The notes below the pieces were generated by a model that had not been told where the DNA came from, ran no database searches, and saw nothing but the letters and a program-made list of their open reading frames with translations. Position numbers and translations under genes: made by a program. Positions 1,640 to 29,575 of a stretch of DNA of 31,740 nucleotides are shown piece after piece (positions within the stretch are counted from its first letter, which is position 1; each line of letters starts with the position of its first letter). The stretch spans positions 1 to 31,740 of the IMG/VR virus record IMGVR_UViG_3300044993_000462; one strand, given 5' to 3'. The stretch comes from a virus.

Positions 1640-2724
1640 GACAATACTTTTACGCTATAAATTTTACATTCATTTTTATTTTCTTTAAACCTCATAAACA
1701 AAAGAACAACCGAATATCTTTTAAGTTCTTTGGGGTATCTTACAACATTTTCTCCCCAATTTGGCCATATGACTCTTTCTGAGATTCTTCCGTCTATATC
1801 TACGGTCATTTTAAGAGCTTTTTTCTCGTTATCACTAAAGGAAAACTCTTTTGTATCAATGATATACGCAGGAACGCAGAAATTTATATCCTTTGAAAAC
1901 GGAGCACGTTTTTCCAGCTCAAAAAATTGATCTCCTGTCAGCATACAATACGCTATTCCTTTTTCATCTGAAAACATAGGTCTATTGGCCGTACCCTCGT
2001 TCATAAGGTTTGCAAAACGAGAAACTATAGCTGATAAGTTCATCGGCAAGGTAGGTAAAACCATCTTTTTTGCTATAAAATCTTGCAAAGGATTCATTGA
2101 TAAATATTCAGGGTCAACCTTACCTTTTGTTGGAGGCTTGGCTTTTTTACCTGCCGCTATTTTTTCTTCGTAAGCTACCTCTAAAACGGCATCTTCATAG
2201 ATCTGCATCTTTTCTAATAGGGTAGCTTCTTTAGGGAAAAGACTATCCATAACCCCAACATGGATAAGCCTTTTAGTTAAAGACGGACCTGCTACTTTTT
2301 TGCGTATAAAATCTTTTATATCAGAATAGGGAGCATTTTCTATGATAGGCTTAGCAACCGCTTCTCCAAGACCTCTCATAACAGTTAGCTTAGCTCTAAT
2401 CTTGTTTCTTTCGTAGTCAATTTCCATCTCATTTGATGAGAGGTTGATATCTGGAGGGATAACCTTGTCTTTGACGTGTTTGAATAGGGTTGTTGAGATT
2501 TCGCTTTCATCCGCGTTTGTCAATACCGACGCCCACCATTCCATTGGATAGTGATGTTTCAAATACATACAAGCGTATGTGATCATCGCATACGCAGTGG
2601 CGTGGGAGCAATTATGGGCTATTGCTCCGTTCTCTAAGATAAAATTATGATTTTTTGGCATCGATATATCATAAACTGATATTTTTTCTTTTTTTAGAAC
2701 TTTCTTCACTAAAAGCTTCTTCAT
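1636..2724 (-). CDS. dnaE: DNA polymerase III alpha, C-terminal half, with IntC of a split intein
   Basis: This gene makes 362 residues. Residues 1-38 are the C-terminal fragment of an intein: block F-like VYDISMPKNHNFIL and block G ending AHN, with penultimate His37 and Asn38, followed by Cys39 as the +1 residue. Residues 39-362 are the C-extein and begin CSHATAYAMITYACMYLK, the conserved DnaE motif usually written FNKSHxxxYA. They continue through the helix-hairpin-helix-like part (about residues 100-150, VMRGLGEAVAKPIIENAP) to a short C-terminal domain. It has its own AAGAAGG ribosome site seven bases before the ATG and lies 81 bases after the stop of the N-half gene. Trans-splicing with that product should give a polymerase of about 1190 residues, normal for DnaE. 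The gap has stops in the continuing frame, so a frameshift is an unlikely alternative. Confidence 0.93.
   Translation of the reverse strand: MKKLLVKKVLKKEKISVYDISMPKNHNFILENGAIAHNCSHATAYAMITYACMYLKHHYPMEWWASVLTNADESEISTTLFKHVKDKVIPPDINLSSNEMEIDYERNKIRAKLTVMRGLGEAVAKPIIENAPYSDIKDFIRKKVAGPSLTKRLIHVGVMDSLFPKEATLLEKMQIYEDAVLEVAYEEKIAAGKKAKPPTKGKVDPEYLSMNPLQDFIAKKMVLPTLPMNLSAIVSRFANLMNEGTANRPMFSDEKGIAYCMLTGDQFFELEKRAPFSKDINFCVPAYIIDTKEFSFSDNEKKALKMTVDIDGRISERVIWPNWGENVVRYPKELKRYSVVLLFMRFKENKNECKIYSVKVLS
2611..2724 (-). other. Split intein IntC in DnaE (38 aa)
   Basis: This encodes residues 1-38 of the DnaE C-half gene. The visible splicing residues are His37, Asn38 and the +1 Cys39. Its length is typical of natural IntC pieces (about 35-40 residues). 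The matching IntN is at 2809-3099. Confidence 0.92.
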
Positions 2725-2746
2725 ATTTTTGCCTTCTTTACCGTAT

Positions 2747-2790
2747 AATACCTCTTATCGGAATATTTGAAAGATATCTTTAGAGGTATT
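2747..2790 (-). repeat. Inverted repeat with inner palindrome between the two dnaE halves
   Basis: The 81-base gap between the split polymerase genes contains a perfect 9-base inverted repeat, AATACCTCT (2747-2755) and AGAGGTATT (2782-2790). The region between the arms holds a perfect 12-base palindrome, AAAGATATCTTT (2770-2781). The RNA could form a stem with an inner hairpin. No T-run follows, so an intrinsic terminator is not obvious. It may be a processing or stability element that sets the ratio of the two halves, or a scar of the event that split the intein. Confidence 0.5.
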
Positions 2791-2805
2791 TTATTGTATT
2801 TAAAT

Positions 2806-5706
2806 TTAGCTAATAGCATCGATTGGCAACTCTTTCTCTACAATTTCACTTAAAGTGAACCATTCGCCATTAGATAAAAATCTATGATCTGGCGTAGCCT
2901 TTATTATACTACCATCGCTAAGTTCCACTGTCCAGCATTCTTTTTCTCCCTGATACGCACCGAAATCGGGAGTTTCATATTCAACTTGTCCTGTTGCCTC
3001 ATTAAAACTTGCTACAATATGCCCAGATGGGTTTTTGGCTATTTCATCCAATCTTACTAAACCATTTTTCGTCTGGATCATTTGATCGCCCGCCAAGCAG
3101 TTAAAGGAATATCGAGAACTTGTCTCCATCTGCGACCAGATCATCTCAGCTTTTTCTTTTCCTACGGTTTTAACTGCACCTTCCATGAATAGGGGTTTCA
3201 TAGCAAGAGCTTTGGTTTTCTGTTTTTTAGAGAATACCCGACGTAGCTCTTCGGCATCGGTAGGTTGCATCTTACCGATCTCTTTAGCCACCAAAGATAC
3301 GGATTCTTGATAAACAAGTACACCGTAAGTCTCAGGTACAAGCTCAACAAGTTCAGGTAGTTTTATAGTTCCTCTACCCTTTCTACGCTCAATATATTCT
3401 TCTGCCATCGTTAATCCGGTGTCTGGGTCTACGAAGTCTAACGGACCTGGTCTAACTAGAGCTAAAATAGTAGCTAAATCAACTATCGATCTAGGCTTAA
3501 TTTTCATTACGAACGGAATCATAGATTGGGTGTTAATCTGAAATATGGTCTCTGTGTCGCCGTTCCATATTGACCTAAAAACCTCTTCCTCTTCAGGCAA
3601 GTCCCAAATATAGAGTTCTTTTCCGTTATGCATAAAATGGCCAGTTTTGAGGTTGCTTTTATTCTTTTTATTAATCCTATTTATACACCCCTCAATATCT
3701 TTTAACTGATTTACAACAAGAAAGTCATATTTGATGAGTTTGCATTTTTCAACACTCTTAGCTTCATATTGCGTAACGTTACCCATAAACACAGGGACAA
3801 CTTCGCTGATAGGTACATCAGATATGACAAAAGCCGAAGCGTGCTTTGAATTTTGACGGCTAATACCCAAACATCTTTGTACAAGCTCCCATTCTTTAGG
3901 TCTTTCGGTTGCGTACTTTTGAAGATCTGGGCTTACCTCGATAAGACCTGCCATATGGTTCCCATCAGAATCCTCAAAACCAAACACGAAATCCTTATCT
4001 GATACTCCCTGTGGAGGTGGCGGAAGGGCTTTTGAGAGTTTTTCAATTTCTGGATCTACAGTTCCATCGTTCAAATACCTATTCACATCACGAATAGCAC
4101 TTTTAAGTCTTAACTGAATTCTTGTAGATATCTGGGCTGCCTTGTCTCCCCATCGACCAAAAAGATAGCCTGAACGACCATCGGCTCCAACTAAAGGTTC
4201 GCGATCAACAAGGTCGACATCCACGTCTGGCATATCTCCGTTAAAGATACGGTTTAAAGAAAGAAAACGCTCAAAGCTAAGTTTGTACTTGATCGGGTCT
4301 ATGTTGGTAATACCCATCAAATACATAAAAAGAGATCCGCCAGCAGAGCCACGAGCAGGCCCTATAAGCCTTCCAGATCGATTGTAAAAATCTAGAACAT
4401 CACGAATAGGTAAAAAGTATGGAGTCAGATCAATCTTACCGTTCTTAGCTAGTACTGATACCTCATACTTTAATCGTCCGATATAAATCGGGTCGTTTTT
4501 AAGCCGTCCAGTATTTTTTATGATCTCCATACAGATCTGTAACGGATCTTTACCTTCTGGTACTTCAGGAAGTCGGTATTCAAATTTAAGATTAAAATCA
4601 TCAAAACGCTTCGCCCACAAGTTATTTTCTTCTAAAATTTTAGATATCTCAGCATCGCTTAGGCCAATTTTTCTCATATTAGCCACCGCTTCTTCTGAGG
4701 TTTGCATATGGCGTTTGGTGTGTTCTTTTATGTCGTCCTGTGAAAGCCTAACATCTTGTACCGCCTTATCTTCGGGAGTAGCGTAAAAAGCATAGTCAGA
4801 ATACAAAACCTTAACTCCATGTCGTTTTGCTAGCGCATACAAAAATTTATTTGCCTTTAACTGAACATCACCCTCGGGAAATTTCAAAAAACCATTGTGT
4901 GTTTTTGCTTTTAATATTTTAATTCCCGGCTCTGGGAAAGAGATGTTTGCATAATTTCGTTGATAGCTTTTTAGAAGATAGTGTTTATTAGGGTTTTCAA
5001 CAAGCTCTTTTGCTTGGGCATACCTTGCTGCGTTGGTAGAAACGCGCGTATCGGCAAATACAACGTCCTTCTTCCCGTTTGCAAGCTCAAATTCTACTAG
5101 GTTAACCCATGTGTGGGTTACTTCGTTTCCAACCAAAACAACGTAATAATTCTCGCCAAACATACTCTTAAGCTTAAGAAGTATCTTTTCTCCCAATTCT
5201 GGAGTACCAGTTAGGATATGCTTAGAGACCATATCGTGTATATCGCTTGAGCAGGCTATAAGCCCAGCGTTTGCACATTCTTTAATGTCATCCCATCCCC
5301 AAACAGGATAAGGCTCTCCGTAGTGCATAACCGTGTCGTTGCGCTCTTTTGAAGAAAGCTTGGATAGGACTTTGAATTGATCTTGGTTTTGAGCATATAA
5401 GGTCAATTTGAAGTAAGCGGCTTTTTCAGCTTTTGTTTTTTTTACAACCTCGCAATTCTTATCTTTAAAGAAGATTTCAAGCCCTGCGATAAATTGGAGT
5501 TTAGGTGTTGGTTTTCCGTTTTTGTCAGGCTTGCCATCGTATTTTTTACTGTACTCATAAGCTCTGAACAAGCTTGTCATGTAAGCAGGGTCTGTATAGG
5601 CAAAATGAGTGCGTCCAAGCTTTACAGCACGATCGATCATAGACTCTACCGTAGAGCCAGAAATAGGCGATTCGGGATGTGTGTGTGGACTAACTAAAAA
5701 ATTCAT
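2806..5706 (-). CDS. dnaE: DNA polymerase III alpha, N-terminal half, with IntN of a split intein
   Basis: This is the family C replicative polymerase, split. The gene makes 966 residues from the ATG at 5706, chosen over the in-frame GTG at 5709 because GGAG sits at a better distance. It contains an N-terminal PHP domain (SPHTHPESP, His8 and His10), the palm motif GPARGSAGGSL (449-459), catalytic Asp494 and Asp496 in PDVDVDL, the third Asp661 in KYDFLVV, ALVRPGPLDF (749-758) and ETYGVLVYQE (792-801). The extein ends SSRYSFN at 869. Cys870 starts the intein fragment CLAGDQMIQTKNGLVRLDEI, whose block B TPDHRF is intact, and the protein stops at 966 after about 97 intein residues. The insertion point lies inside the conserved FN-K-SH motif of DnaE. 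The gene overlaps the stop of the proofreading exonuclease (TGATG), so both are probably co-translated. Confidence 0.95.
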   Translation of the reverse strand: MNFLVSPHTHPESPISGSTVESMIDRAVKLGRTHFAYTDPAYMTSLFRAYEYSKKYDGKPDKNGKPTPKLQFIAGLEIFFKDKNCEVVKKTKAEKAAYFKLTLYAQNQDQFKVLSKLSSKERNDTVMHYGEPYPVWGWDDIKECANAGLIACSSDIHDMVSKHILTGTPELGEKILLKLKSMFGENYYVVLVGNEVTHTWVNLVEFELANGKKDVVFADTRVSTNAARYAQAKELVENPNKHYLLKSYQRNYANISFPEPGIKILKAKTHNGFLKFPEGDVQLKANKFLYALAKRHGVKVLYSDYAFYATPEDKAVQDVRLSQDDIKEHTKRHMQTSEEAVANMRKIGLSDAEISKILEENNLWAKRFDDFNLKFEYRLPEVPEGKDPLQICMEIIKNTGRLKNDPIYIGRLKYEVSVLAKNGKIDLTPYFLPIRDVLDFYNRSGRLIGPARGSAGGSLFMYLMGITNIDPIKYKLSFERFLSLNRIFNGDMPDVDVDLVDREPLVGADGRSGYLFGRWGDKAAQISTRIQLRLKSAIRDVNRYLNDGTVDPEIEKLSKALPPPPQGVSDKDFVFGFEDSDGNHMAGLIEVSPDLQKYATERPKEWELVQRCLGISRQNSKHASAFVISDVPISEVVPVFMGNVTQYEAKSVEKCKLIKYDFLVVNQLKDIEGCINRINKKNKSNLKTGHFMHNGKELYIWDLPEEEEVFRSIWNGDTETIFQINTQSMIPFVMKIKPRSIVDLATILALVRPGPLDFVDPDTGLTMAEEYIERRKGRGTIKLPELVELVPETYGVLVYQESVSLVAKEIGKMQPTDAEELRRVFSKKQKTKALAMKPLFMEGAVKTVGKEKAEMIWSQMETSSRYSFNCLAGDQMIQTKNGLVRLDEIAKNPSGHIVASFNEATGQVEYETPDFGAYQGEKECWTVELSDGSIIKATPDHRFLSNGEWFTLSEIVEKELPIDAIS
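2809..3099 (-). other. Split intein IntN in DnaE (97 aa)
   Basis: This encodes residues 870-966 of the N-half. Block A begins with Cys870 (CLAGD); block B is SDGSIIKATPDHRFL, with the usual Thr and His. The fragment ends with a native stop codon after LPIDAIS. It pairs with the IntC at 2611-2724; no endonuclease domain is present in either piece. Confidence 0.93.
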
Positions 5707-6338
5707 CACTTCTCCAGTACTGAAAGAATATCAAAAGAAAGTCCTCCATATCCTTCTACGTTTCTTTTCAACATCTGGATCATTTTATCATAAACTTCGA
5801 TCATCATCAAGACATCATCTTTAGCGGTATGCGCTTTTCTTTCTTGAATATTAAAATATCTAACCAAGCTTCCTAGATTTCCTACTGTTTCGGGAAGAAT
5901 CCCGATATCTTTTAGGATGTTTGTTAGTACAGATGTGCACGCAATACCATAATGAACGCTAGATTCCCATTCTTTTTGGGTCAATAGCTGCCGTGTAAAA
6001 TTTATATCAAAAGCTACGTTATGACCCAAGGGTCTTGGTTTTGATTTAGATATACCTTTAAATTCCTTAAGAAATGATTTTAGTTTAGCTGATGCCTCAA
6101 CCCTAGAAATAGTCTCAGGATCAGTATTATGTTTTTCAAGATCGATGCCGTTGACCTTCATAGCATCCTCTTCGATAAGATCAAAAGGAGCTTCAGGTCT
6201 AATCTTAAGCTCAAGATCTCCTAATATGTTTAAATTCTTATCAAGAGCAGCAAAATATCCGGTTAATATCGGGTTTTTAGATGGGTCAATCCCTCCAGTT
6301 TCAAAATCAAACGCGATGTATTTTGTTTCACTCATCAT
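5706..6338 (-). CDS. dnaQ: DnaQ-like 3'-5' proofreading exonuclease (DEDDh)
   Basis: This 210-residue exonuclease should proofread for the family C polymerase, which in bacteria lacks a built-in exonuclease and uses DnaQ/epsilon. The DEDDh motifs are all visible: ExoI AFDFETGG near residue 10, ExoII LGHNVAFDINF near residue 105, and ExoIII AHTAKDDVLMMIEVY near residue 170 with the His and Asp of the DEDDh subclass. It is close to the length of the exonuclease domain of epsilon. Two ATG codons follow a TTG at 6341; ATG 6338 or 6335 is preferred because AGGGG lies just upstream. The gene overlaps the small gene upstream by about 11 bases and its stop overlaps the dnaE start. The arrangement dnaQ-dnaE supports a polymerase-proofreader module. 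Confidence 0.93.
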   Translation of the reverse strand: MMSETKYIAFDFETGGIDPSKNPILTGYFAALDKNLNILGDLELKIRPEAPFDLIEEDAMKVNGIDLEKHNTDPETISRVEASAKLKSFLKEFKGISKSKPRPLGHNVAFDINFTRQLLTQKEWESSVHYGIACTSVLTNILKDIGILPETVGNLGSLVRYFNIQERKAHTAKDDVLMMIEVYDKMIQMLKRNVEGYGGLSFDILSVLEK

Positions 6339-6552
6339 CAACCCCTAGTAATTTTTTTAGATTTTCTATTGCTTCTTTATATATCCTATCAACTTCTTCT
6401 TTCTCCATCAAGAGAACTTTTGCGGCATGAGAAGATTCTACCCCTTCGTCGTGACGATGCATAAATTTTTCTAAAGAATTGCCGTATTTAGGACTGTATA
6501 TGAAGTCTGGTTCGGTTAAAATTCTTTCTTTTAATTTTTCTTTATTATTCAT
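6328..6552 (-). CDS. Small phage protein, 74 aa, with sigma region 4.2-like C-terminus
   Basis: This is a 74-residue protein of the pattern ILTEPDFIYSPKYGNSLEKF near the N-terminus followed by a helix-rich second half. The last 30 residues (AAKVLLMEKEEVDRIYKEAI, then ENLKKLL) resemble the helix-turn-helix of sigma region 4.2, in which a helix, a turn and a recognition helix end in a kLR-like segment. I have the impression of similar small proteins in marine T4-like phages, but I cannot verify it. The ATG overlaps the stop of isrB (ATGA), and the GGAG in front of it lies at the edge of the inserted element, so its expression now depends on the insertion junction. A DNA-binding or RNA-polymerase-binding role is inference only. 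Confidence 0.75.
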   Translation of the reverse strand: MNNKEKLKERILTEPDFIYSPKYGNSLEKFMHRHDEGVESSHAAKVLLMEKEEVDRIYKEAIENLKKLLGVDDE

Positions 6553-7589
6553 AGAAACTCCGCAAGGAAACCTCCTGTCTTTAGACAGGGGAGGAGCCGT
6601 GTCCTCCAGCTTGAATAAGCCAGAAACTTACACTCAGACGGCTTGGCGTTCTGGCACAACCTTTGACCATCCGTCAGCCTATGCAGGCTGATCCGATCTT
6701 TAAGAAATCCTCCCACATAACAGACTCCCCACTTGGGATGCTTGACCAGACTGCCGCGCTTGAGCCTCAAGCTCAGGGTGCCGCCATAGAGCCTGCGCAC
6801 CCCACCCTTGTCTGGTTTTAGGCGATGAAGCTGACGACGATGAAAACGAAGCGGCGTCACGCAAATAAGACGGGTATTGTCTGGTTGGGTGCGCCCGCCC
6901 ACCTCCGCATACGCCAACACCCAGGAATCCACACAATGGGCTTCGAAGACTTCCGCAGTTTTCTTGCCGATTTTCTTTAAGCCCAAAGCATCTCGAAGCT
7001 GTTTGGTCTCCCAGCCGCTTTTGGTTATTACAGGAGCGAGCTTGTCCAGTTCCTGATAAAACCATTGTTTCCCAACTTCAAGCGGGGAAAAGTGCACATC
7101 CCACTTTCTCTTACCCTTCGTCTTGGCTTTGATGTTCTCAACGACGAAGAGGGAAATGGGATATAGTTTGGTGAGAAACCGACTCAGTCTGAGCTTCCAT
7201 TGCCAGCGGGCTTTGGTGGAGGGCTGAATTCCTCCTCTTGCTCGGTTGAAGCGCGGCTGACGGCATGGAGTTTTACGGAAGCGGCGGCTCCTGCGCATCT
7301 GGCGGCGCTGTTCAACGTGGTCCTTGACCCAAGTGGCCGCATCGGCTTGGATGTTTAGATAGGTGTGGGTTGCCGATTTGACTGTAATACCTTCTTTCTT
7401 GGAGCCTGAGTCAATGCCCGTAACTACTTTCTGGACTTCTCGGTCAGAGGGTTCAACATTCAGTCGCACGCAGAATATTCCCCGTTTCCAAAATGGTGTC
7501 GCTTTCCCGCTCTTAATCCATCGCCTCGCCCGAGAGGGTGTCGTAGGCATCAGCGGCCTATTGTTTCGATCAACGACAGATACGAACAT
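6549..7589 (-). CDS. isrB: IsrB, HNH-lacking RNA-guided OMEGA nuclease
   Basis: IsrB proteins are IscB relatives that use an omega-RNA to nick DNA with a RuvC domain. From ATG 7589 the product is 346 residues, typical of IsrB. Visible in order: the N-terminal PLMP motif (RPLMPTTPSRARRWIKSGKA, 11-30), RuvC-I VTGIDSGSK with Asp60, an Arg-rich bridge helix (95-118), RuvC-II FVVENIK with Glu151, and RuvC-III EAHCVDSW with His218 and Asp221. Only about 65 residues separate RuvC-II and RuvC-III, so there is no room for the HNH domain of IscB. The C-terminal part has GGVRRLYGGT and the LVKHPKWGVCYVGG signature. This start has GGAGG eight bases upstream; an in-frame extension to 7688 would run into the omega-RNA region. 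The region is clearly more GC-rich than its neighbours, and the stop overlaps the next start (ATGA). Confidence 0.9.
   Translation of the reverse strand: MFVSVVDRNNRPLMPTTPSRARRWIKSGKATPFWKRGIFCVRLNVEPSDREVQKVVTGIDSGSKKEGITVKSATHTYLNIQADAATWVKDHVEQRRQMRRSRRFRKTPCRQPRFNRARGGIQPSTKARWQWKLRLSRFLTKLYPISLFVVENIKAKTKGKRKWDVHFSPLEVGKQWFYQELDKLAPVITKSGWETKQLRDALGLKKIGKKTAEVFEAHCVDSWVLAYAEVGGRTQPDNTRLICVTPLRFHRRQLHRLKPDKGGVRRLYGGTLSLRLKRGSLVKHPKWGVCYVGGFLKDRISLHRLTDGQRLCQNAKPSECKFLAYSSWRTRLLPCLKTGGFLAEFL
6571..6594 (-). repeat. Right-end hairpin of the IS200/605-like element
   Basis: CCTCCTGTC and GACAGGGGAGG flank a TTTA loop, forming an imperfect hairpin. It lies inside the 3' end of isrB, as expected for IS200/605-family right ends that overlap the accessory gene. 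Such hairpins are the binding sites of the Y1 transposase. Confidence 0.75.
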
Positions 7590-7906
7590 GCGATAAGCCT
7601 CCGTTTGGAGTATGTACATCCCTTCGGGACTGACCAACGCATAGGATGCAGACTTGGGAAGCATCCGCATCGTGCCTTGGGCTGCCACGCCCAGTTGGTT
7701 CAGTTGCCTTCAAACGCCCCACGGACACTGTTACCAGGCCGCGTTGCTCGGTTACCCTAGTCTTTCTCGCTGCTCCCAGTCGATTTTCCGATCGTTTTTC
7801 GAACTTCTCGGACAGGTCGATCCTTCTGGGCAGATTCAGCGCCTTGTAGTTTCTGGCTGGCAAAGTCGTACTCCTTTCAACAAGCCCCCGACTTAAGTCG
7901 AAGGTA
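7590..7906 (-). ncRNA. Putative omega-RNA of IsrB
   Basis: About 300 bases lie between the left-end palindrome and the isrB start, matching the known position and size of IsrB omega-RNAs (upstream of the gene, guide at the 5' end). The region is GC-rich, lacks a convincing coding frame, and can form several stems, for example GGATGC with GCATCC at 7644-7666 and GGGC/GCCC just upstream. The scaffold would run into the isrB ribosome site. The guide would be read from phage DNA flanking the element (about 7922-7907). The call rests on context and local stems, not on a covariance model, and the exact ends are unknown. Confidence 0.6.
7889..7900 (-). repeat. Left-end palindrome of the IS200/605-like element
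   Basis: CGACTTAAGTCG is a perfect 12-base palindrome next to the inferred left border, followed on the minus strand by GGGGG. It is the likely transposase-recognition hairpin and marks the 5' end of the omega-RNA scaffold. Confidence 0.65.
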
Positions 7907-21158: not shown

Positions 21159-22928
21159 GTGTCTATAAGAAAAACCAAAACATCAGCTAAAATGTTTGTT
21201 TCAGACCAAGAACGTCTTCAAGAGATAGTTCTTAAAACCATGAACAGAATTAGCGATATAGTGGGAGCTACTTTTGGCCCTGGTGGGCGAAACATCCTTA
21301 TCGAAAGCGATATCCCCGGCATCCCTAACACCAACACTAAAGATGGTGTAACAGTCTTCCAAGCATTAGGAGCTGCAAACCCATACGAACACCTTATCAT
21401 CGAACAAGCTAGGGATTCGGCAAAAAGAACCGCAACAGAAGCGGGAGACGGAACAACCACCGCAACCATTCTTTCGGCAGCTCTTATTAATTATCTGTAT
21501 GATTTTTGTAACAAAAACCCTAAATTTAGCCCACAAAAAGTCGCCAGAGACGTAGCTTCCGTAGTTCGGAAAAAACTTGTACCTTTAATCAGAGAAAGCG
21601 CTATTCCTATTACCCCAGAAAACAGAGAACTTTTAAGACTGGTTGCTAAGGTTTCGGCAAACGGTGATGAGGACATGGCCGATGCTGTTATGAAGGCTTT
21701 TGAAGAACTTGGATACGGAGAAAATGCCCATGTGACAATTAAACAGGTTACAGGTCCCTATGGGTATGAAGTTGGTCTAATTGAAGGTTTTCCTATCCCT
21801 ATTGGATATGAAGAATCTATCGGAAAGTTTCATGCTGCTTTTATAAACGATCCTGCCAACCAAAGATGTCTTTTAGAGAACCCAAAATTTTTATTGTTTG
21901 ATGGTCAATTAGGAGATTTGATTTCGATACAAAACATAACAGATCAGGTAGGGCAGAAATATAACGATGGAGATACGGATTATAAAAATCTTGTCATCTT
22001 CGCTCACGGATATAGCGACTCGGTAATCAATGCTCTTGCTTATAACTTTCAAGACCCTGTTACGATCAATGTAGTCCCTATGATTACTCCCAAAGCAGGT
22101 TTTATGAATGCTCAAACACATTTTATGCACGATTTAGCAGCTTTTACTGGAGCAAAAGTTTTTGGGTTAAAAGATAGTCTAGCCAAAGCTACTCTCGAAG
22201 ATCTTGGTTCTGGGATGAAAACATTTGAAATTTATAGGTTTAGATCTACAATCGTCGGTGATCCAGATCCTGTAAATATCGAGGTAAGAGCTGACGAGCT
22301 TTCTCAGCAAAAAAAGTCCGCAGAAAGTAAGGAAGAGGCTCTTTGGCTTGAAGAGCGTTTAGGCAAACTAACTTCAGGCATTGCAAAGCTAACGATTTAT
22401 GGTGGCTCTAACGGAGAGCTTAAAGAAGCTCATGATAGATGTGAAGATGCTGTTTGTGCTGTTAGAGCTGCGATTAGCAAAGGGGCACTGGCGGGCGGTT
22501 GTCGTATGCTTTTAAATCTTTTTGACTATGTAATTTCGTCTAAAGATTTACCAGCGCACGTCAAAAACGTTCTTGCTCCGTCTCTAATGGTTCCTATCAC
22601 AAAGCTTTTAAATAATGCTGGAATTAACGAAGAGGAATCCAAAGAGATAATCGAAAAACTTTTAGCTGATAAAAATCTTGTGTATGATGTAGAAAATCAA
22701 AAATTTGGAACAGCAGAAGAACTTGGAGTTTTTGATTCGCTTCCTGCCGTAGAAGAAGCTTTAAAAAACGCAACATCTATAGCAACCGTGATGGGTACTC
22801 TTGGTGGACTTATAGCTTACCCTAGAGATGAGATATTTGAAAGACAAGAAGCGGCTGCTGATGCAGAGTTTAGAAGGATGGTAGAAAATCCTACAAGCTT
22901 TACAAATGAAGCCAACGAGAGAATTTGA
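21159..22928 (+). CDS. groEL: Phage GroEL-like chaperonin (group I)
   Basis: This gene makes 589 residues starting with GTG at 21159 behind a GGAGG site. The ATP-binding motifs are conserved: VGATFGPGGRNILIE (35-49), TKDGVTVF (60-67) and AGDGTTTATIL (95-105). Later it has DRCEDAVCAVRAAISKGALAGG, the counterpart of the C-terminal equatorial segment with its nucleotide-binding residues. The apical region (about 190-380) is highly diverged, including a stretch rich in polar residues. The usual GGM tail is absent (ends EANERI). Phage-encoded GroELs are known in a few large phages and help to fold capsid or nuclear proteins. It is the first gene of the rightward head operon and overlaps terminase at TGATG, which suggests a role in head protein folding. 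Confidence 0.95.
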   Translation: MSIRKTKTSAKMFVSDQERLQEIVLKTMNRISDIVGATFGPGGRNILIESDIPGIPNTNTKDGVTVFQALGAANPYEHLIIEQARDSAKRTATEAGDGTTTATILSAALINYLYDFCNKNPKFSPQKVARDVASVVRKKLVPLIRESAIPITPENRELLRLVAKVSANGDEDMADAVMKAFEELGYGENAHVTIKQVTGPYGYEVGLIEGFPIPIGYEESIGKFHAAFINDPANQRCLLENPKFLLFDGQLGDLISIQNITDQVGQKYNDGDTDYKNLVIFAHGYSDSVINALAYNFQDPVTINVVPMITPKAGFMNAQTHFMHDLAAFTGAKVFGLKDSLAKATLEDLGSGMKTFEIYRFRSTIVGDPDPVNIEVRADELSQQKKSAESKEEALWLEERLGKLTSGIAKLTIYGGSNGELKEAHDRCEDAVCAVRAAISKGALAGGCRMLLNLFDYVISSKDLPAHVKNVLAPSLMVPITKLLNNAGINEEESKEIIEKLLADKNLVYDVENQKFGTAEELGVFDSLPAVEEALKNATSIATVMGTLGGLIAYPRDEIFERQEAAADAEFRRMVENPTSFTNEANERI

Positions 22929-25444
22929 TGACGTTAGAAGAAAAAGAAGAGGAATTAAAAAAAAAGCATTTTTTAGATGTTTTAGAAAATGCTGAACAGC
23001 TTTCAAATTGGGTTTATACATACCTAGGCATACGTCTACCTTCAGATAATATCGATCCCGATTCAAACAGCAATCCCATAGACGCTATGTGGGAAATTTA
23101 TGAGGCTGTAAAACTCAATAAAGGGGAAGATATACCCGGCTACATAATGCTTTCGGCTCGTGAAGGGTATAAAACTCTCTCCAGCTCTATTCTTGAAGTT
23201 TTGATCTTGACTCATTTCCAGCTTTCGATCGCTCACATGGCCGCTATCTCTTCTCAGAGCAACAAGGCGATTAGTTATATCCAATCTTTTCTGGTTAAAC
23301 TGAAACCTTACTATGATTACCATGGATGGAAAAAGGTAGGAGATTCTAAAACTAAAATCCAGTTTCAAACACCACAAGGAAACTCTCCGTATATTACGGT
23401 GGTTATTTGTACGCTGCAAGGTGCGAACTGCATTTCTGGGGATTCTATTTTAGAGCTAGAAAACGGAAAAACAATAAGAGCCGCAGAGGTTTCTGAGGGT
23501 TTAAAAATAAAAACATGGGACTATAGAAATCAAAAAGACGTCTATGTTGTCTCTAAGGGTGTTTCTTTAGTAAAAAAACACGCAAGAAAACTTATCTTTT
23601 CAAATGGATCAGAAATCATACTGTCTGATGATCATCTTGTTTTTACCCAAAACGGCTGGGTATTTGCGGATTCTGTTAAACTTGGGGACAAATTTAAGTC
23701 AAGCGGTTTAGTATCTAAAAGTTTTGCAATTAAAAAAGATCATTATCAGGTTTTTGATAGCAAAAAACTGTCTTCTTATAGAGTTAAGAAGGGTCTAACT
23801 GTAGATTCTGGCGAGTGGTTTTGTTCCGATAGAGATAAAGAAGGTTTTTCCTATTCAAAAGAGCCTACCAGTAGATTAAAGAAAAATCTATTTAAGCAAG
23901 TAAGAAACTCCCTCGATATAGAAGTCACAAAAATCGAGCTATTAGGACTTCAAGAATTAGTCGATATACACATAGATAACGAAGATCCTGTTTTAAGGTC
24001 TTTTTACGCAAACGGCGTTTTTGTTCATAATTCCGAGCATGTTCCTATCATGTTCTTAGATGAGGTTGATGTCGTTCGTGATCCGCAGGCCTACGACGAA
24101 GCAAAGATGATTCCCGGCATGGAAAGAGGGTTTTATCCGATAACAGTAAAACTTTCGACTAGAAAGTTTGCTTTCGGTATGATGCAAAGAGAGCTTGAGC
24201 TTGCCAACACAACAGGCGAGATCATTAAAAGATGGAACATCTTAGACGTAGCCGAAAAATGCCCACCTGAGCGTCACCAGCCAAACGAAGATGGCAGTAA
24301 AGTTGAGCTCTATGTACACAAAAAACTACCTTTAAGATCTTCGTTTGAAAGCGATTATAAAGCCTTACCAGAGGCTCAAAAATCGGATTGGGAAAAGGTT
24401 AACGTTCATCCGGGGTGCGTTAAATGTCCCCTTGTAGCTGTTTGTAAGGGAAGACTTGCCGATAAGCCCGATAAAGCGAAATCTACAAAGTACAGTCTTT
24501 ATAAACCGATAAAATCCGTTATCAACAGCTTCAAGAAGATTCCGCCAGATATGGCGGAAGCGCAGTTGATGTGCTGGAGACCTTCAACCAAAGGTCTAAT
24601 TTACCCTAGGTTTGAGCCTACGCAACAAAATGGTAATTTGGTATCCATCTCTAAAGCGTGGGAGATAGTGACAGGAGACAAGAAGGACAATGTAAATATT
24701 ACAGAGTTAGTCACGATGCTTCACGATACGAACTCAAGATTCTACGCAGGGGTAGACTGGGGATATGCCCATGAAAGTACGATCGTGGTTATGGTCGTAA
24801 CATCTTCAGGATATTCTTTTATAATAGATACTTATGGCAGTCCGGGTCTTGAGACTCATGAGTTTGTAGAAGTTTGTGCCGATTACCAAGAAAAGTACGG
24901 GATCGAGCGTTGGTTTTGCGATAACGCGGCGCCTGCAAACATCAAAACCCTAAAAAAACGCCTTAAAATGGTAAACCCCCATATCGTAGTACCAGACTTT
25001 AAGAAAGATGTCTTAGCAGGAATAGAAGCTATTAGGAGCCAAATTTTAACCTCTTCAGGAGCTAGAAGGCTATTAGTCCTAGATACTCCTGAAAATCAAA
25101 AAATTATACAAGGATTTAAGGTACACCATTTTAAGTTAGACATGGCAGGCAACCCTACAACAACCCCAGATGACGAGGAATATGCCGATATCATGGATGC
25201 TTTAAGGTATATTGGGCAAAACGTATTTTTAAAGACCGCCCAAAAACCCCTTTCAGGGATGGATATAAACAAAAATTTAGGGGTTTATAAGGCAGCTCAG
25301 GCAGACCCCAAACTTGTTGAGGTAGCTCAGGGGGTTAATACCGAGCTTATGAAGCAAGAGGTCTCTAAAAGGATAGCTCAGCCTTCATCTCAAATTGATG
25401 ATAATATAAAAAAGAACAGAAAGATATTTTGGAACACCGAATAG
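22928..25444 (+). CDS. terL: Terminase large subunit with an inserted mini-intein
   Basis: This is the packaging motor ATPase-nuclease, 838 residues before splicing and about 637 after. ATPase: a variant Walker A LSAREGYKT (75-83, Lys82) and Walker B MFLDEVD (375-381). Nuclease: RNase H-fold Asp610 in AGVDWGY, Asp665 in FCDNA, and Asp757 in ADIMDALRY. The intein occupies residues 168-368, between QGAN and SEHVP, upstream of Walker B. Four cysteines (445, 497, 500, 506) follow the spacing C-Xn-C-x2-C-x5-C and may bind a metal. The start is ATG 22928 (TGATG overlap with GroEL); a TTG at 22925 is in frame. Confidence 0.95.
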   Translation: MTLEEKEEELKKKHFLDVLENAEQLSNWVYTYLGIRLPSDNIDPDSNSNPIDAMWEIYEAVKLNKGEDIPGYIMLSAREGYKTLSSSILEVLILTHFQLSIAHMAAISSQSNKAISYIQSFLVKLKPYYDYHGWKKVGDSKTKIQFQTPQGNSPYITVVICTLQGANCISGDSILELENGKTIRAAEVSEGLKIKTWDYRNQKDVYVVSKGVSLVKKHARKLIFSNGSEIILSDDHLVFTQNGWVFADSVKLGDKFKSSGLVSKSFAIKKDHYQVFDSKKLSSYRVKKGLTVDSGEWFCSDRDKEGFSYSKEPTSRLKKNLFKQVRNSLDIEVTKIELLGLQELVDIHIDNEDPVLRSFYANGVFVHNSEHVPIMFLDEVDVVRDPQAYDEAKMIPGMERGFYPITVKLSTRKFAFGMMQRELELANTTGEIIKRWNILDVAEKCPPERHQPNEDGSKVELYVHKKLPLRSSFESDYKALPEAQKSDWEKVNVHPGCVKCPLVAVCKGRLADKPDKAKSTKYSLYKPIKSVINSFKKIPPDMAEAQLMCWRPSTKGLIYPRFEPTQQNGNLVSISKAWEIVTGDKKDNVNITELVTMLHDTNSRFYAGVDWGYAHESTIVVMVVTSSGYSFIIDTYGSPGLETHEFVEVCADYQEKYGIERWFCDNAAPANIKTLKKRLKMVNPHIVVPDFKKDVLAGIEAIRSQILTSSGARRLLVLDTPENQKIIQGFKVHHFKLDMAGNPTTTPDDEEYADIMDALRYIGQNVFLKTAQKPLSGMDINKNLGVYKAAQADPKLVEVAQGVNTELMKQEVSKRIAQPSSQIDDNIKKNRKIFWNTE
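23429..24031 (+). other. Mini-intein in terminase (201 aa)
   Basis: The intein starts with Cys168 in CISGDSILELENGKTI and ends with GVFVHN, where Asn368 is followed by Ser369 as the +1 residue. Block B is present as SNGSEIILSDDHLVFTQNG, with Ser replacing the usual Thr. Between blocks B and F the linker (about 258-325) has no LAGLIDADG or HNH signature, so the homing endonuclease has been lost. Confidence 0.93.
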
Positions 25445-26437: not shown

Positions 26438-29400
26438 ATGTCAGAAGAAAAAGAAAAAACAAAAAAGAACATAATCTTTGGTGCGGGCGAAATAGACGCT
26501 GCTGTTTTAGAGGCTAATAATTTAGTAAAAAATGAAGGCGAGGGCGCTCTTACGTTTGCGATCAAAAATGCAATGGGATCTGCAAAAAAGAATAGAGCTC
26601 CACGTATCGGTTTTACTGAAGATCCGATAGGAACAGATCATTACGCTGGTGTCTATAAAGTTAAAAAGAAGCTTCTACCTGATTCGGTACTTAAACTTGT
26701 TCGTGTACAAAACCACTTGGTAGCATCGATACTAAGAGCGAGAGCAAACACTATGTCCATGTTTGGACATATTAAGAAAGATCGTTTTGATATAGGTATT
26801 GAAGTTTCTATAAAACCTGAATTCGAAGAGCATATCAGACCAGATCAGATGGTAAAGATTAGAGATCGCATTGAAAAATTTAAAAAAATTATCATCAATT
26901 GCGGTCATACTGATGGTTTACCAGAAGATGAAAAGATGACCCTTTCTGAGTTTTTATATCTTCAAACTTTAGACGGATTATCTTTAGGTCGTTTTGCTAC
27001 CGAGATTGTCTACGAAGATAATGACAACGGAATTAGCTCAGATCTAAAAGATCGTGCTAAAAAATTCCACCGTTTTAGACCTGTAGATGCGGGCACCATA
27101 TACAAAACGGTCAAAAAAGGCGAGGCTGCTCATGGTTTAAGAGAAACGGGAATCAAACTTCTTGAGCAGGTTACAGGAAAAAAAATCAACGGTGTCGCTT
27201 TTGAAAAAGATGAATATGCGTATGTTCAGGTCATAGAAGGTATGCCAAAACAGGCTTTCGCTCCTGACGAGTTGATAGTACATAATCTTTATCCTTCAAA
27301 CGATATCGATCATAACGGCTATCCTACAACTCCTATCGATACGTGTATCAGCTCGATCACTACCCATATCTCGATCGATGCGTATAACAAGCTTTATTTT
27401 CAAAACGGAAGAGCTGCTAAGGGTATCTTAGTTATCAAATCCGAAGAGCTTGATCAGAACACTCTGAATCAGCTAAAACAAGATTTCATGGCGTCTATAA
27501 ATAACGTAGGAAACTCTTTCAGGGTTCCAGTTTTCGGAGTCGGCAAAGAAGATGAGATTGGATGGACGCCGATGGTTTCAAGCGCAGGAGATGGGGAATT
27601 CCAATTTCTATATGACGCGGTCGCAAGAAATATCTTATCAACCTTTAGTATGTCTCCTGATGAACTGCCCGGCTATGGACATCTTTCAAGGGGGACGAAC
27701 GCTCAGACATTATCTGAATGTTTCGATATAGACTCTCCTTTCTTGTCCAGTCTCGGATATAAGACCGCTAGACAAATTCTTGGAGAAAAAACAGAAGCAC
27801 CTCTTATGGTGTGGACTGGTAAAAAATGGCAAGAAGGTAGGGTATTTAAAACTGGAACCAAACAATTGGCTCAAACAGTTACAACTAGCGGTTTAACCGT
27901 AAGAACGTCTCCAGACCACAGATTTTTAGCTTTAGGTGAAGACGGATCGCCTGCATGGGTTCACCAGTCAGATTTAAAAGAAGGCGATTACGTTCTAGTT
28001 AACGCTCAGCCTATAAAGGGGCACGAGGATTTCTTACCTTCTTTTAACGGCAAAAAGATCACTAAAGAACTTCTTGAAGTTTTAGGCTGGATGACAGGAG
28101 ACGGTTCTCTTATTGCTCCTCGTTTTAGAGCGGGTGGAAAGATAGTCTTATTTTATCATCACGATAAAGAAGCAGACGTACAACAAAGACATTTAAATAT
28201 ACTGACTTCTTTTGGTGTTAACGCCAAAGAAGACAATAAGCCCGTTTCTCAAGAAGAGCAAGAAAAAATTAAGGGGCGCTATGGATTTAAAAATGTAGCA
28301 GAGTTAAGAAGGCGCATAACTATCTATGATACCGATTTTGTTAGATTTTTACTAGAAAATGGATTTGAAACCTCTTTAAATGGCAAATCTATCCCAGAAT
28401 TCTTGCATCTAATACCTGCTGAATATAAGGCTGCCTTTTTAAGAGGACTATTCTCCGCCGATGGACATGCGACCACCACAGGACAGATTATTTTAACTAT
28501 ACAAGAAGATCATTTAAGAAATGAAGTTAGAGGGCTCTTATACGAATTGGGCATAAGATCTAATGGGTATAAAGGAGTCAAAAGGGATAATAGCAGATCA
28601 GATAACCTATCTGGAACTCAAGATTTTAGCCATAAAATCTCTGTAAGAGACACTGAAAAATATTGGGAAATGATCGGTTTTGTTCAAGAGCATAAAAACT
28701 CTAGGAGAAAAGAGAAAAAATGGCTATTGGATGAACTTCCTCATTCTACCGTAAATCTTTTATGCTCTACGATAAAAGAATCGGAAGGTTTCAAGCTATT
28801 AGACAAGGCAGAAAGAGATCGTTTGACCGCGGCCATTAAAGGCACTATAAACCTAAGTTTAAATACCATAAAAAAGTATGCGGCTAAGGCCGATGTTATC
28901 TTGCCTGAATGGATTAGCGAGTATAACGTAGAAAAGATAGAAAGCGCAATTATTCTTGACGAATCTTGCGAGATGGTCGACGTAGAGGTTTTTGATGATG
29001 AGCATGCGTTTATATTGAACGGGTTTGTAGTCCATAACTCTTCAAACGAGTTCAAGCTAACAGCCGCTCGAGACACAGGTCTAAGACCGCTTATTCTTCA
29101 GTTTCAGTCATTCTTAAACGAAAAACTTTTTCAGATTATAGACCCTGAGCTTGCTCAACTTTGTACGATCAAACTTTCTGGCTTAGATGCCCAGTCAAGA
29201 GATCAGGAGACAAATAGGCTTCAACAGGCGATGCCAATCCACATGGATTACGATCAGGTTTTAACTGACGTAGAAAAGAAACCTGTCGGGGAAAGAATGG
29301 CAGGCAAGGTGCCATTTAACGAGCATTGGCAAATAATAGCAGACAAATATATAGATGTGGCCGAGATCATGGCTGAGTTCATGAAAAGCCCAGCAGCTTT

Positions 29401-29575
29401 AGCTGATCCTCTCTTAAAATATAAAAGAGATCCGTTCTGGATTCAAAATATGCAGATTTTGATGCAGATTAACCCTGCTGCTGTTAAGGCTTACTATGCT
29501 ACAAAACCTTATGCTATCGAAATCTTAAAGATGATGATAGAAGATTATCTAGAAGAAGATTCGGAAAGGAAATAA
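26438..29575 (+). CDS. Portal protein with a LAGLIDADG intein
   Basis: This encodes 1045 residues, of which 428-867 (440 aa) are an intein. The spliced protein would be 605 residues, typical of a portal. Portal identity is drawn from the location between TerL and the minor head gene, the order of helical and beta parts, FRPVDAGTIYKTVKKGE, IISIDAYNKLY-like segments and the segment STFSMSPDELPGYGHLSRGT before the intein, followed after it by SNEFKLTAARDTGLRPLILQ. The portal makes the ring through which DNA enters the head. The intein sits in the conserved part facing the helical core, where a non-spliced copy could not function. Confidence 0.88.
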   Translation: MSEEKEKTKKNIIFGAGEIDAAVLEANNLVKNEGEGALTFAIKNAMGSAKKNRAPRIGFTEDPIGTDHYAGVYKVKKKLLPDSVLKLVRVQNHLVASILRARANTMSMFGHIKKDRFDIGIEVSIKPEFEEHIRPDQMVKIRDRIEKFKKIIINCGHTDGLPEDEKMTLSEFLYLQTLDGLSLGRFATEIVYEDNDNGISSDLKDRAKKFHRFRPVDAGTIYKTVKKGEAAHGLRETGIKLLEQVTGKKINGVAFEKDEYAYVQVIEGMPKQAFAPDELIVHNLYPSNDIDHNGYPTTPIDTCISSITTHISIDAYNKLYFQNGRAAKGILVIKSEELDQNTLNQLKQDFMASINNVGNSFRVPVFGVGKEDEIGWTPMVSSAGDGEFQFLYDAVARNILSTFSMSPDELPGYGHLSRGTNAQTLSECFDIDSPFLSSLGYKTARQILGEKTEAPLMVWTGKKWQEGRVFKTGTKQLAQTVTTSGLTVRTSPDHRFLALGEDGSPAWVHQSDLKEGDYVLVNAQPIKGHEDFLPSFNGKKITKELLEVLGWMTGDGSLIAPRFRAGGKIVLFYHHDKEADVQQRHLNILTSFGVNAKEDNKPVSQEEQEKIKGRYGFKNVAELRRRITIYDTDFVRFLLENGFETSLNGKSIPEFLHLIPAEYKAAFLRGLFSADGHATTTGQIILTIQEDHLRNEVRGLLYELGIRSNGYKGVKRDNSRSDNLSGTQDFSHKISVRDTEKYWEMIGFVQEHKNSRRKEKKWLLDELPHSTVNLLCSTIKESEGFKLLDKAERDRLTAAIKGTINLSLNTIKKYAAKADVILPEWISEYNVEKIESAIILDESCEMVDVEVFDDEHAFILNGFVVHNSSNEFKLTAARDTGLRPLILQFQSFLNEKLFQIIDPELAQLCTIKLSGLDAQSRDQETNRLQQAMPIHMDYDQVLTDVEKKPVGERMAGKVPFNEHWQIIADKYIDVAEIMAEFMKSPAALADPLLKYKRDPFWIQNMQILMQINPAAVKAYYATKPYAIEILKMMIEDYLEEDSERK
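27719..29038 (+). other. LAGLIDADG homing intein in the portal gene (440 aa)
   Basis: Cys428 begins the intein (CFDIDSPFLSSLGYKTARQI). Block B reads LTVRTSPDHRF, and the end is EMVDVEVFDDEHAFILNGFV with VHN (Asn867) and +1 Ser868. Two LAGLIDADG motifs are in LEVLGWMTGDGSL (546-558) and FLRGLFSADGHA (667-678), each with the catalytic acidic residue, so the endonuclease looks intact. The product should splice itself and cut intein-free portal alleles. Confidence 0.93.

What the first reader, a model, noticed from the sequence alone, without database searches (positions are those of the whole stretch)
2611..3099. Family C replicative polymerase split by a natural split intein
The two genes each end or begin in a clean intein half: Cys870 with CLAGD and TPDHRF in the N-part, and AHN followed by Cys39 in the C-part. 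The insertion site is inside the conserved FN-K-SH motif, a few residues from the site of the cyanobacterial DnaE split intein, and the +1 residue is Cys in place of Lys. The halves are adjacent, so a genome rearrangement has not yet separated them. A phage that depends on trans-splicing for its polymerase is unusual, and a fast split intein of this sort is also of biochemical interest.
Basis: partly seen in the sequence, partly recalled or inferred. Interest (0 to 1): 0.75.

Follow-up and report, generated by a model that had tools for sequence, protein, structure and literature searches.

The report
Phage DNA polymerase split by intein
This uncultured phage makes its DNA-copying enzyme as two separate proteins that a self-removing protein segment should join, and its relatives suggest the gene was cut by a selfish DNA-cutting enzyme that has since been lost here.

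Summary
On the minus strand, DnaE is encoded as an N-half (5709-2806) and a C-half (2724-1636) that end and begin in canonical split-intein halves (97 and 38 aa). The 81 bp between them carry four in-frame TAA codons. It is neither a sequencing error nor unique. Four other IMG/VR contigs carry a split intein at the same DnaE point, two near-identical contigs carry a contiguous one, and six DnaE genes examined are uninterrupted there.

In two contigs (L003, L124) a 355-358-aa putative homing endonuclease gene lies between the halves, overlapping both. In two (L106, L126) only an internally deleted remnant is left. In the window only a 32-codon mini-ORF with the same 14-nt overlap, and a 24-nt 3' footprint, remain. 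The endonuclease's catalytic domain is predicted to fold like Vsr and I-Bth0305I. The intein is younger than the extein at synonymous sites, and intein and extein trees disagree, so it has moved between phage lineages.

Best reading: a homing, HEN-fractured DnaE intein whose endonuclease was deleted here, leaving a naturally split, trans-splicing polymerase. New member of a known kind. Splicing is untested.

The parts
3100..5709 (-). N-extein of DnaE (PHP, polymerase and finger domains), 870 codons counting the GTG
   Evidence: PF02811, PF07733 and PF17657 matches; 88% identity of the N-gene to L003 and 82% to L005 (=L002)
2809..3099 (-). N-intein, 97 aa, from Cys1 (CLAGD) with block B ATPDHRF
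   Evidence: TIGR01445 E 1.7e-8 over cut-off; best PDB sequence matches are cyanobacterial DnaE inteins; dN/dS 0.068 against L003
2806..2808 (-). TAA stop of the N-half, first of four in-frame TAA
2721..2819 (-). Mini-ORF of 32 codons, read as the fused ends of the lost endonuclease gene: its ATG overlaps the N-half stop by 14 nt (as in L003, L106, L126), and its TGA overlaps the C-half ATG by 4 nt
   Evidence: The encoded peptide itself does not match the L003 endonuclease better than shuffles (3181 of 5000 shuffles reach the score)
2749..2816 (-). 68 nt without detectable homology to L003; holds a 9-bp inverted repeat (arms 2790-2782 and 2755-2747)
   Evidence: z -2.08, 3 of 200 shuffles fold as well. 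Origin unexplained
2725..2748 (-). 3' footprint of the endonuclease gene (reads LYGKEGK in its frame), directly upstream of the C-half ATG; contains GAAGG (2736-2732), a possible ribosome-binding site
   Evidence: 21 matches over 24/25 nt with one gap; its best position in the whole L003 endonuclease gene is the orthologous one, 5940. The 3 substitutions (TTG/TTA, GGG/GGT, GAG/GAA) are third-position synonymous in the endonuclease frame (sequences)
2611..2724 (-). C-intein, 38 aa, ending AHN
   Evidence: TIGR01443 E 1.9e-7 over cut-off; 97% identical to L003
1636..2610 (-). C-extein of DnaE, starts with Cys+1 (CSHATAYA), 324 aa plus stop
   Evidence: TIGR00594, phrog_405 and HHH_6 matches; 78% identical to intein-free L002
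5706..6341 (-). DnaQ-like 3'-5' exonuclease gene overlapping the DnaE start; the partner expected of a family C polymerase
   Evidence: RNase_T E 2.8e-7

Best explanation
The phage's replicative polymerase DnaE is translated as two proteins from two adjacent genes. The 97-aa N-intein on the first and the 38-aa C-intein on the second should associate, fold into one HINT domain and excise themselves: Cys1 makes the N-S acyl shift, Cys+1 takes the trans-thioesterification, and the terminal Asn cyclises. This would join the exteins between Asn870 and Cys39 into a polymerase of about 1194 residues. The split arose as a 'fractured gene': a free-standing homing endonuclease gene, nested so that its start lies inside the end of the N-half and the C-half start lies inside its end, separated the two intein halves and drove the whole cassette into DnaE genes of related phages. 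In this genome the endonuclease was then deleted internally, leaving the overlapping start codon, a 24-nt 3' remnant and the C-half's start region. Shown: the split halves, their conservation, the site, the series of endonuclease states, and the intein/extein discordance. Inferred: splicing, endonuclease activity, and the order of events.
For: Both halves are over curated intein cut-offs, and the best PDB matches are cyanobacterial DnaE inteins. The same site is split in L003, L106, L124 and L126 and contiguous in L122/L123; the site is empty in L002, L021, L022, L023, L024 and Mx1. Strong purifying selection acts on all pieces, window against L003: dN/dS 0.014, 0.068, 0.051, 0.026 (N-extein dS is saturated). 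The endonuclease is intact in L003 and L124 (46% identical). L106 keeps a C-terminal remnant (Smith-Waterman score 78, 0 of 5000 shuffles) and a weaker N-terminal one (75 of 5000). L126 keeps an 88-aa fused remnant. The start/stop overlap is 14 nt in the window, L003, L106 and L126, 20 nt in L124, 44 nt in L138. The 24-nt footprint is at the orthologous place. The endonuclease catalytic domain model (pLDDT 86.9) finds Vsr first (Foldseek probability 0.99 but E 0.056; Z 8.2 for 1cw0 and 7.3 for I-Bth0305I 3r3p). Mobility: of same-amino-acid codons, 94/120 are identical in the intein against 399/810 in the extein, window against L003 (Fisher p about 1e-9; 77/100 and p about 1e-7 without the dual-coding parts). 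The intein tree rejects L124+L126 (p-AU 0.003), while the extein tree has them as sisters (100/99) and rejects window+L003+L124 (p-AU 1e-66).
Against: No splicing or cleavage was measured. The mini-ORF's peptide is not detectably endonuclease-like, and 68 nt of the gap have no known source. Foldseek gave no match at E <= 0.001 for the endonuclease, and no sequence library recognises it. Low synonymous divergence of the intein could in part reflect unknown constraint; codons 1-30 of the N-intein are less similar (16/27) than the rest. The clade win+L003+L124+L106 in the intein tree is below the starred level (89/91). The record is a 31.7-kb fragment, so another dnaE elsewhere cannot be excluded.
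Confidence: 0.87

Rival explanations
1. The endonuclease never was in the window's lineage: the intein broke first, and endonuclease genes invaded the gap later in L003, L124, L106 and L126.
For: The window's mini-ORF peptide does not match the endonuclease; 68 nt of the gap are unaligned.
Against: L003 and L124 (intact) and L106 and L126 (remnants) share the same nested arrangement, and the window shares the 14-nt overlap and a 24-nt stretch that is endonuclease coding sequence in L003, with only third-position synonymous differences. Exteins of the window and L003 are far closer to each other than to L124. Later gain would need repeated insertion in the same register.
Confidence: 0.08
2. One polypeptide is made in cis by stop-codon read-through or ribosome bypass across the 81-bp gap, giving a contiguous mini-intein.
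For: The halves are in the same frame, and the gap holds a hairpin.
Against: There are four TAA codons in frame, no tRNA gene in the window, and a possible Shine-Dalgarno GAAGG before an ATG that is kept in all five split loci. In L003 and L124 a whole separate gene lies between the halves.
Confidence: 0.03
3. Sequencing or assembly error in a contiguous intein.
For: Single metagenomic contig; no reads available.
Against: Four TAA in frame and independent contigs with the same split point.
Confidence: 0.01
4. A dying, non-functional dnaE: the intein no longer splices and a host or second polymerase replicates the phage.
For: The conserved Lys of FNKSH is replaced by Cys; the record is incomplete.
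Against: Low dN/dS in exteins and intein halves (against L003, itself split); all splice residues kept; Leu or Arg occupy this position in intact phage DnaE.
Confidence: 0.03

Closest known systems
Cyanobacterial DnaE split intein (Ssp/Npu DnaE)
   Different: Inserted 3 residues further downstream (FN|C-SH instead of Y|CFNKSH); the cyanobacterial inteins form a separate branch (100/100); halves adjacent rather than far apart; endonuclease remnant present.
'Fractured genes' of phage metagenomes with Vsr-like endonucleases (Dassa et al. 2009, recalled; not held)
   Same: Conserved enzyme gene broken by a split intein with a free-standing endonuclease gene in between (L003, L124); Vsr/EDxHD-like catalytic fold.
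   Different: The window has lost the endonuclease. I could not check whether DNA polymerase III is among the eight enzyme types that paper lists.
Split-intein PolB with HNH endonuclease in Pseudomonas jumbo phage vB_PaeM_MIJ3 (PMC6892783, passages read)
   Same: A phage replicative polymerase fractured by a split intein with an endonuclease gene between the halves.
   Different: Family B polymerase and an HNH endonuclease, still present.
Contiguous DnaE mini-intein of L122/L123 (IMG/VR)
   Same: Same insertion site (YGFN|C, AHN|CSHATAY).
   Different: One continuous reading frame through the intein, no endonuclease.

Membership tests
Inteins (class 1, HINT) | N-terminal Cys/Ser and block A | tested here: met
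   CLAGD; TIGR01445 over cut-off
Inteins (class 1, HINT) | Block B TxxH, C-terminal block F, His-Asn and nucleophile +1 | tested here: met
   ATPDH; VYDISMPKNHNFILENGAIAHN|C; TIGR01443 over cut-off
Inteins (class 1, HINT) | HINT fold | tested here: inconclusive
   Single-sequence AlphaFold2 failed (pLDDT 36.7); sequence matches to solved HINT structures are strong
Natural split intein | Two separate genes, each with an extein and one intein half | tested here: met
   repeated in 4 other contigs
Natural split intein | Trans-splicing activity | not testable with these tools
   needs expression of the two halves
Cyanobacterial DnaE split intein allele | Insertion before the CFNKSH Cys | tested here: not met
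   Insertion is 3 residues downstream
Fractured gene (Dassa 2009) | Split intein with a free-standing endonuclease gene between the halves | tested here: not met
   Not in the window (81-bp gap); met in L003 and L124, remnants in L106 and L126. The window is read as a derivative
Vsr-like / EDxHD homing endonuclease (the L003/L124 gene) | Vsr-like catalytic fold | tested here: inconclusive
   1vsr Foldseek rank 1, probability 0.99, E 0.056, no match at E <= 0.001; Z 8.2 / 7.4 / 7.3 for 1cw0, 1vsr, 3r3p; no match to Pfam Vsr
Vsr-like / EDxHD homing endonuclease (the L003/L124 gene) | Site-specific cleavage of the intein-free allele | not testable with these tools
   needs a cleavage assay; mobility is supported indirectly
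Family C polymerase DnaE | PHP, polymerase and finger domains, catalytic Asp motif (motif recalled) | tested here: met
   PF02811, PF07733, PF17657; PDVDVDL present

The most novel reading that the evidence does not exclude
The window is a stage of split-intein evolution caught after the endonuclease is gone: the polymerase must now be trans-spliced though nothing selfish in the locus enforces it. The intein may still spread, either by copying from phages that carry the intact endonuclease (L003-like) during co-infection or by ordinary recombination. The retained 32-codon mini-ORF with its ATGA junction may now serve as a translational coupler that balances the two halves.
Probability: 0.3. 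Interest if true: 0.65.

Novelty: new member of a known kind. Interest (0 to 1): 0.52.

Why it matters
How naturally split inteins arise is mostly argued from end points such as cyanobacterial DnaE. Here one insertion site in one gene shows, in different phages, the empty site, a contiguous intein, a split intein with intact endonuclease, two split inteins with decayed endonucleases, and one with almost nothing left. That makes the route from homing element to obligatory trans-splicing testable, and adds five new split intein pairs of the size class used in protein engineering.

Tried and rejected
Single-sequence AlphaFold2 of the read-through intein gave no usable model. Sequence searches of the L003 endonuclease against Pfam, PHROGs, PDB and phages found nothing meaningful; only the predicted fold helped. 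The first DNA alignment of the gap misaligned the 3' part and was replaced by local alignment. The idea that the mini-ORF peptide resembles a middle part of the endonuclease was tested and dropped. Read-through, bypass and sequencing error were considered and rejected (see rivals). The gap's hairpin sequence has no second copy in the window. Rfam found nothing at E 0.1 in the window. The intein sequence tree does not resolve L126, L138 and L122.

Loci not used: of the 35 loci, 21 were read and 10 were already known or read; L150, L158, L161 and L162 were not read. Of the 80 cyanobacterial loci six were tried and five kept for trees (L027 gave no match to the start pattern). L007, L008 and L009 carry only endonuclease relatives. 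L022's short distance to other rows does not affect the conclusions; long branches (L024, L106, L138, L122) make deep extein branching unsure.

Literature: Dassa 2009, Taylor 2011 and Carvajal-Vallejos 2012 are not held; what I say of Dassa 2009 is recalled. Passages were read of PMC6390638, PMC3943268, PMC7090010, PMC10448857, PMC11766414, PMC6892783, PMC7765530, PMC12350094 and PMC3403396; of PMC3229294 and PMC3653736 only reference entries were seen. I found no paper on this DnaE site in phages in searches; most subscription papers are outside the library.

Full report
What is there. On the minus strand, a DnaQ-like exonuclease gene (6341-5706) overlaps dnaE-N (5709-2806), which is followed after 81 bp by dnaE-C (2724-1636). 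dnaE-N ends in a 97-aa intein N-half starting with Cys; dnaE-C begins with a 38-aa intein C-half ending in Asn, followed by Cys+1. Both halves pass curated intein cut-offs. The exteins match DnaE over PHP, polymerase and finger domains and the C-terminal HHH region. Both genes are in one frame, but four TAA lie between them. Against the PDB, the joined intein's best matches are the cyanobacterial DnaE inteins.

Where it sits. The insertion is RYSFN|CSHATAY. In cyanobacteria the DnaE intein follows AEY, three residues upstream. Six DnaE genes examined have no intein at the window's site: L002 (FN-L-SH), L021, L022, L023 (FN-K-SH), L024 (FN-L-SH) and Myxococcus phage Mx1 (FN-R-SH). L002, 82% and 78% identical to the two window halves, carries a different contiguous intein at another DnaE site.

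Relatives with the same intein site. Eight scans of IMG/VR and one of 84,980 genomes were used. L003 (UViG_3300045922_000715) has the same split intein, 91% identical in the N-half, but a 358-aa gene lies between the halves. L124 (UViG_3300048813_000140, 176 kb) has the same layout with a 355-aa relative, 46% identical. L106 (UViG_3300032053_016284) has a split intein and a gap with the two ends of such a gene: the C-terminal piece scores 78 against the L003 protein (0 of 5000 shuffles), the N-terminal piece 41 (75 of 5000). L126 (UViG_3300031788_000018) has an 88-aa fusion of the gene's two ends. L122 and L123 hold one continuous intein at this site. L138 has the same layout with an intact gene, but four residues further on (GFNRSHS|C). 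In the 50,697 phage records, the C-intein and N-intein searches found no DnaE with this intein and the endonuclease search found none.

The nested layout. The endonuclease ATG overlaps the N-half stop by exactly 14 nt in L003, L106 and L126, and a 32-codon mini-ORF does so in the window; it is 20 nt (GTG) in L124 and 44 nt in L138. The C-half ATG lies inside the endonuclease's end by 56 nt in L003 and L124, 38 in L106, 29 in L138 and 13 in L126; in the window the mini-ORF ends in an ATGA junction. The 24 nt before the window's C-half ATG match the L003 gene best at the orthologous place (21 matches; next non-overlapping place 17), with only third-position synonymous substitutions in the endonuclease frame. 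This is why I read the window as having lost the gene. Against it: the mini-ORF peptide is not recognisably endonuclease (3181 of 5000 shuffles as good), and 68 nt with a hairpin are unexplained.

The endonuclease. No library recognises it by sequence. Its C-terminal domain, modelled from seven related rows (two of them remnants; pLDDT 86.9, pTM 0.79), has E. coli Vsr as first Foldseek match (probability 0.99, E 0.056; no match at E <= 0.001) and I-Bth0305I at rank 11; by VIA-align 2 the three top rows are Vsr, Vsr and I-Bth0305I (Z 8.2, 7.4, 7.3). These Z values are near the level that unrelated folds reach, so the assignment is likely rather than shown. A recent paper describes a large outgroup of EDxHD/Vsr-like phage endonucleases with upstream CapR/DUF4379-like domains (PMC12350094, passages); L007, found here as a relative, has a weak DUF4379 match.

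Mobility. Between window and L003, codons for the same amino acid are identical in 63/85 (N-intein) and 31/35 (C-intein) cases, against 361/735 and 38/75 in the exteins; Fisher p about 1e-9 overall, about 1e-7 (77/100) when intein parts that overlap the L003 endonuclease are left out; the best of 78 extein blocks of 97 codons reaches 0.62. The extein tree makes L124 and L126 sisters (100/99) and places intein-free L002, L021, L022 and L023 between them and the window; the intein tree puts L124 with window and L003 (95/89; 95/93 in the smaller set). The intein data reject L124+L126 (p-AU 0.003) and the extein data reject window+L003+L124 (p-AU 1e-66). So the intein has moved between phage lineages. 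Whether L003's extein is closer to L002 or to the window is not settled (p-AU 0.197).

How it most likely works. Two precursors are made from one transcript; the C-half has its own possible ribosome-binding site (GAAGG, 7 nt before ATG). The halves fold together and splice by the class 1 pathway (established for such inteins; here inferred), giving a DnaE of about 1194 residues with Cys at the former Lys/Leu/Arg position. Purifying selection on all four pieces (dN/dS 0.014-0.068) fits a functional protein.

Known or new. Split inteins with an endonuclease gene between the halves are known as fractured genes (Dassa 2009, recalled), and one cultured phage has such a polymerase (MIJ3 PolB; PMC6892783, passages). 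DnaE split inteins are classic in cyanobacteria, and phage contigs with a split DnaE at the cyanobacterial site were met here as well (L127, L142, L143, L146). New here, as far as my searches go, are this insertion site in phage DnaE and the graded series of endonuclease states at one site.

Noticed in passing
23429-24031 (+), in 22925-25444: TerL carries a contiguous 201-aa intein with no recognised endonuclease domain. In both relatives (G001 = L002 record, G002 = L003 record) the protein match breaks exactly at 168|369 with no insert.
   Followed up: partly
27719-29038 (+), in 26438-29575: Portal protein carries a 440-aa intein with a LAGLIDADG domain; present in the L003 record (93% identity up to its end), absent at 428|867 in the L002 record.
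   Followed up: partly
30858-31739 (+): Head-morphogenesis-like protein carries a LAGLIDADG intein that runs off the window; matches in G001 and G004 stop at its start. With DnaE this makes four inteins in 31.7 kb.
   Followed up: partly
6549-7688 (-): IscB/IsrB-like protein (RRXRR domain; guided_IscB match only over the N-terminal part, below cut-off; no HNH recognised). It lies between the exonuclease gene and the gene at 7893; the same place in L002 and L003 has no such gene. No Rfam RNA match in the window.
   Followed up: no
21159-22928 (+): GroEL-like chaperonin gene (Cpn60_TCP1, E 5.4e-36).
   Followed up: no
L127, L142, L143, L146 and their records (G006, G007, G008, G009): Phage contigs with a split DnaE at the cyanobacterial site (ASN|CFNKAHSVSY). 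The halves lie about 2.8 kb (G006) and about 8 kb (the other three) apart on the same strand, with tail-like genes directly before the C-half.
   Followed up: partly
L138 and L159: Further inteins in the same DnaE motif: L138 split after GFNRSHS, L159 contiguous with a C-extein starting SHAVAYAMNAY. The motif looks like an intein hot spot.
   Followed up: partly
L002:2647-6984: This intein-free relative has a contiguous DnaE intein at another site (ETYGVQ|C...VVHN|CFQEQ); the window's sequence there (GVLVYQESVS) differs from L003's (GVQVFQEQTT).
   Followed up: no
L122 and L123, 2226-3468: DnaE of these contigs is interrupted a second time upstream: an ORF ends at 2226 and dnaE resumes at 3468 with small ORFs in between.
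   Followed up: no
L139/L140 and L149/L150: Other split inteins, in genes that look like ribonucleotide reductase, with endonuclease-like ORFs in the gap (L150 itself not read).
   Followed up: no
2790-2747 (-): 9-bp perfect inverted repeat with a 26-nt loop in the 81-bp gap, not seen in L003; no second copy in the window. Unexplained.
   Followed up: partly
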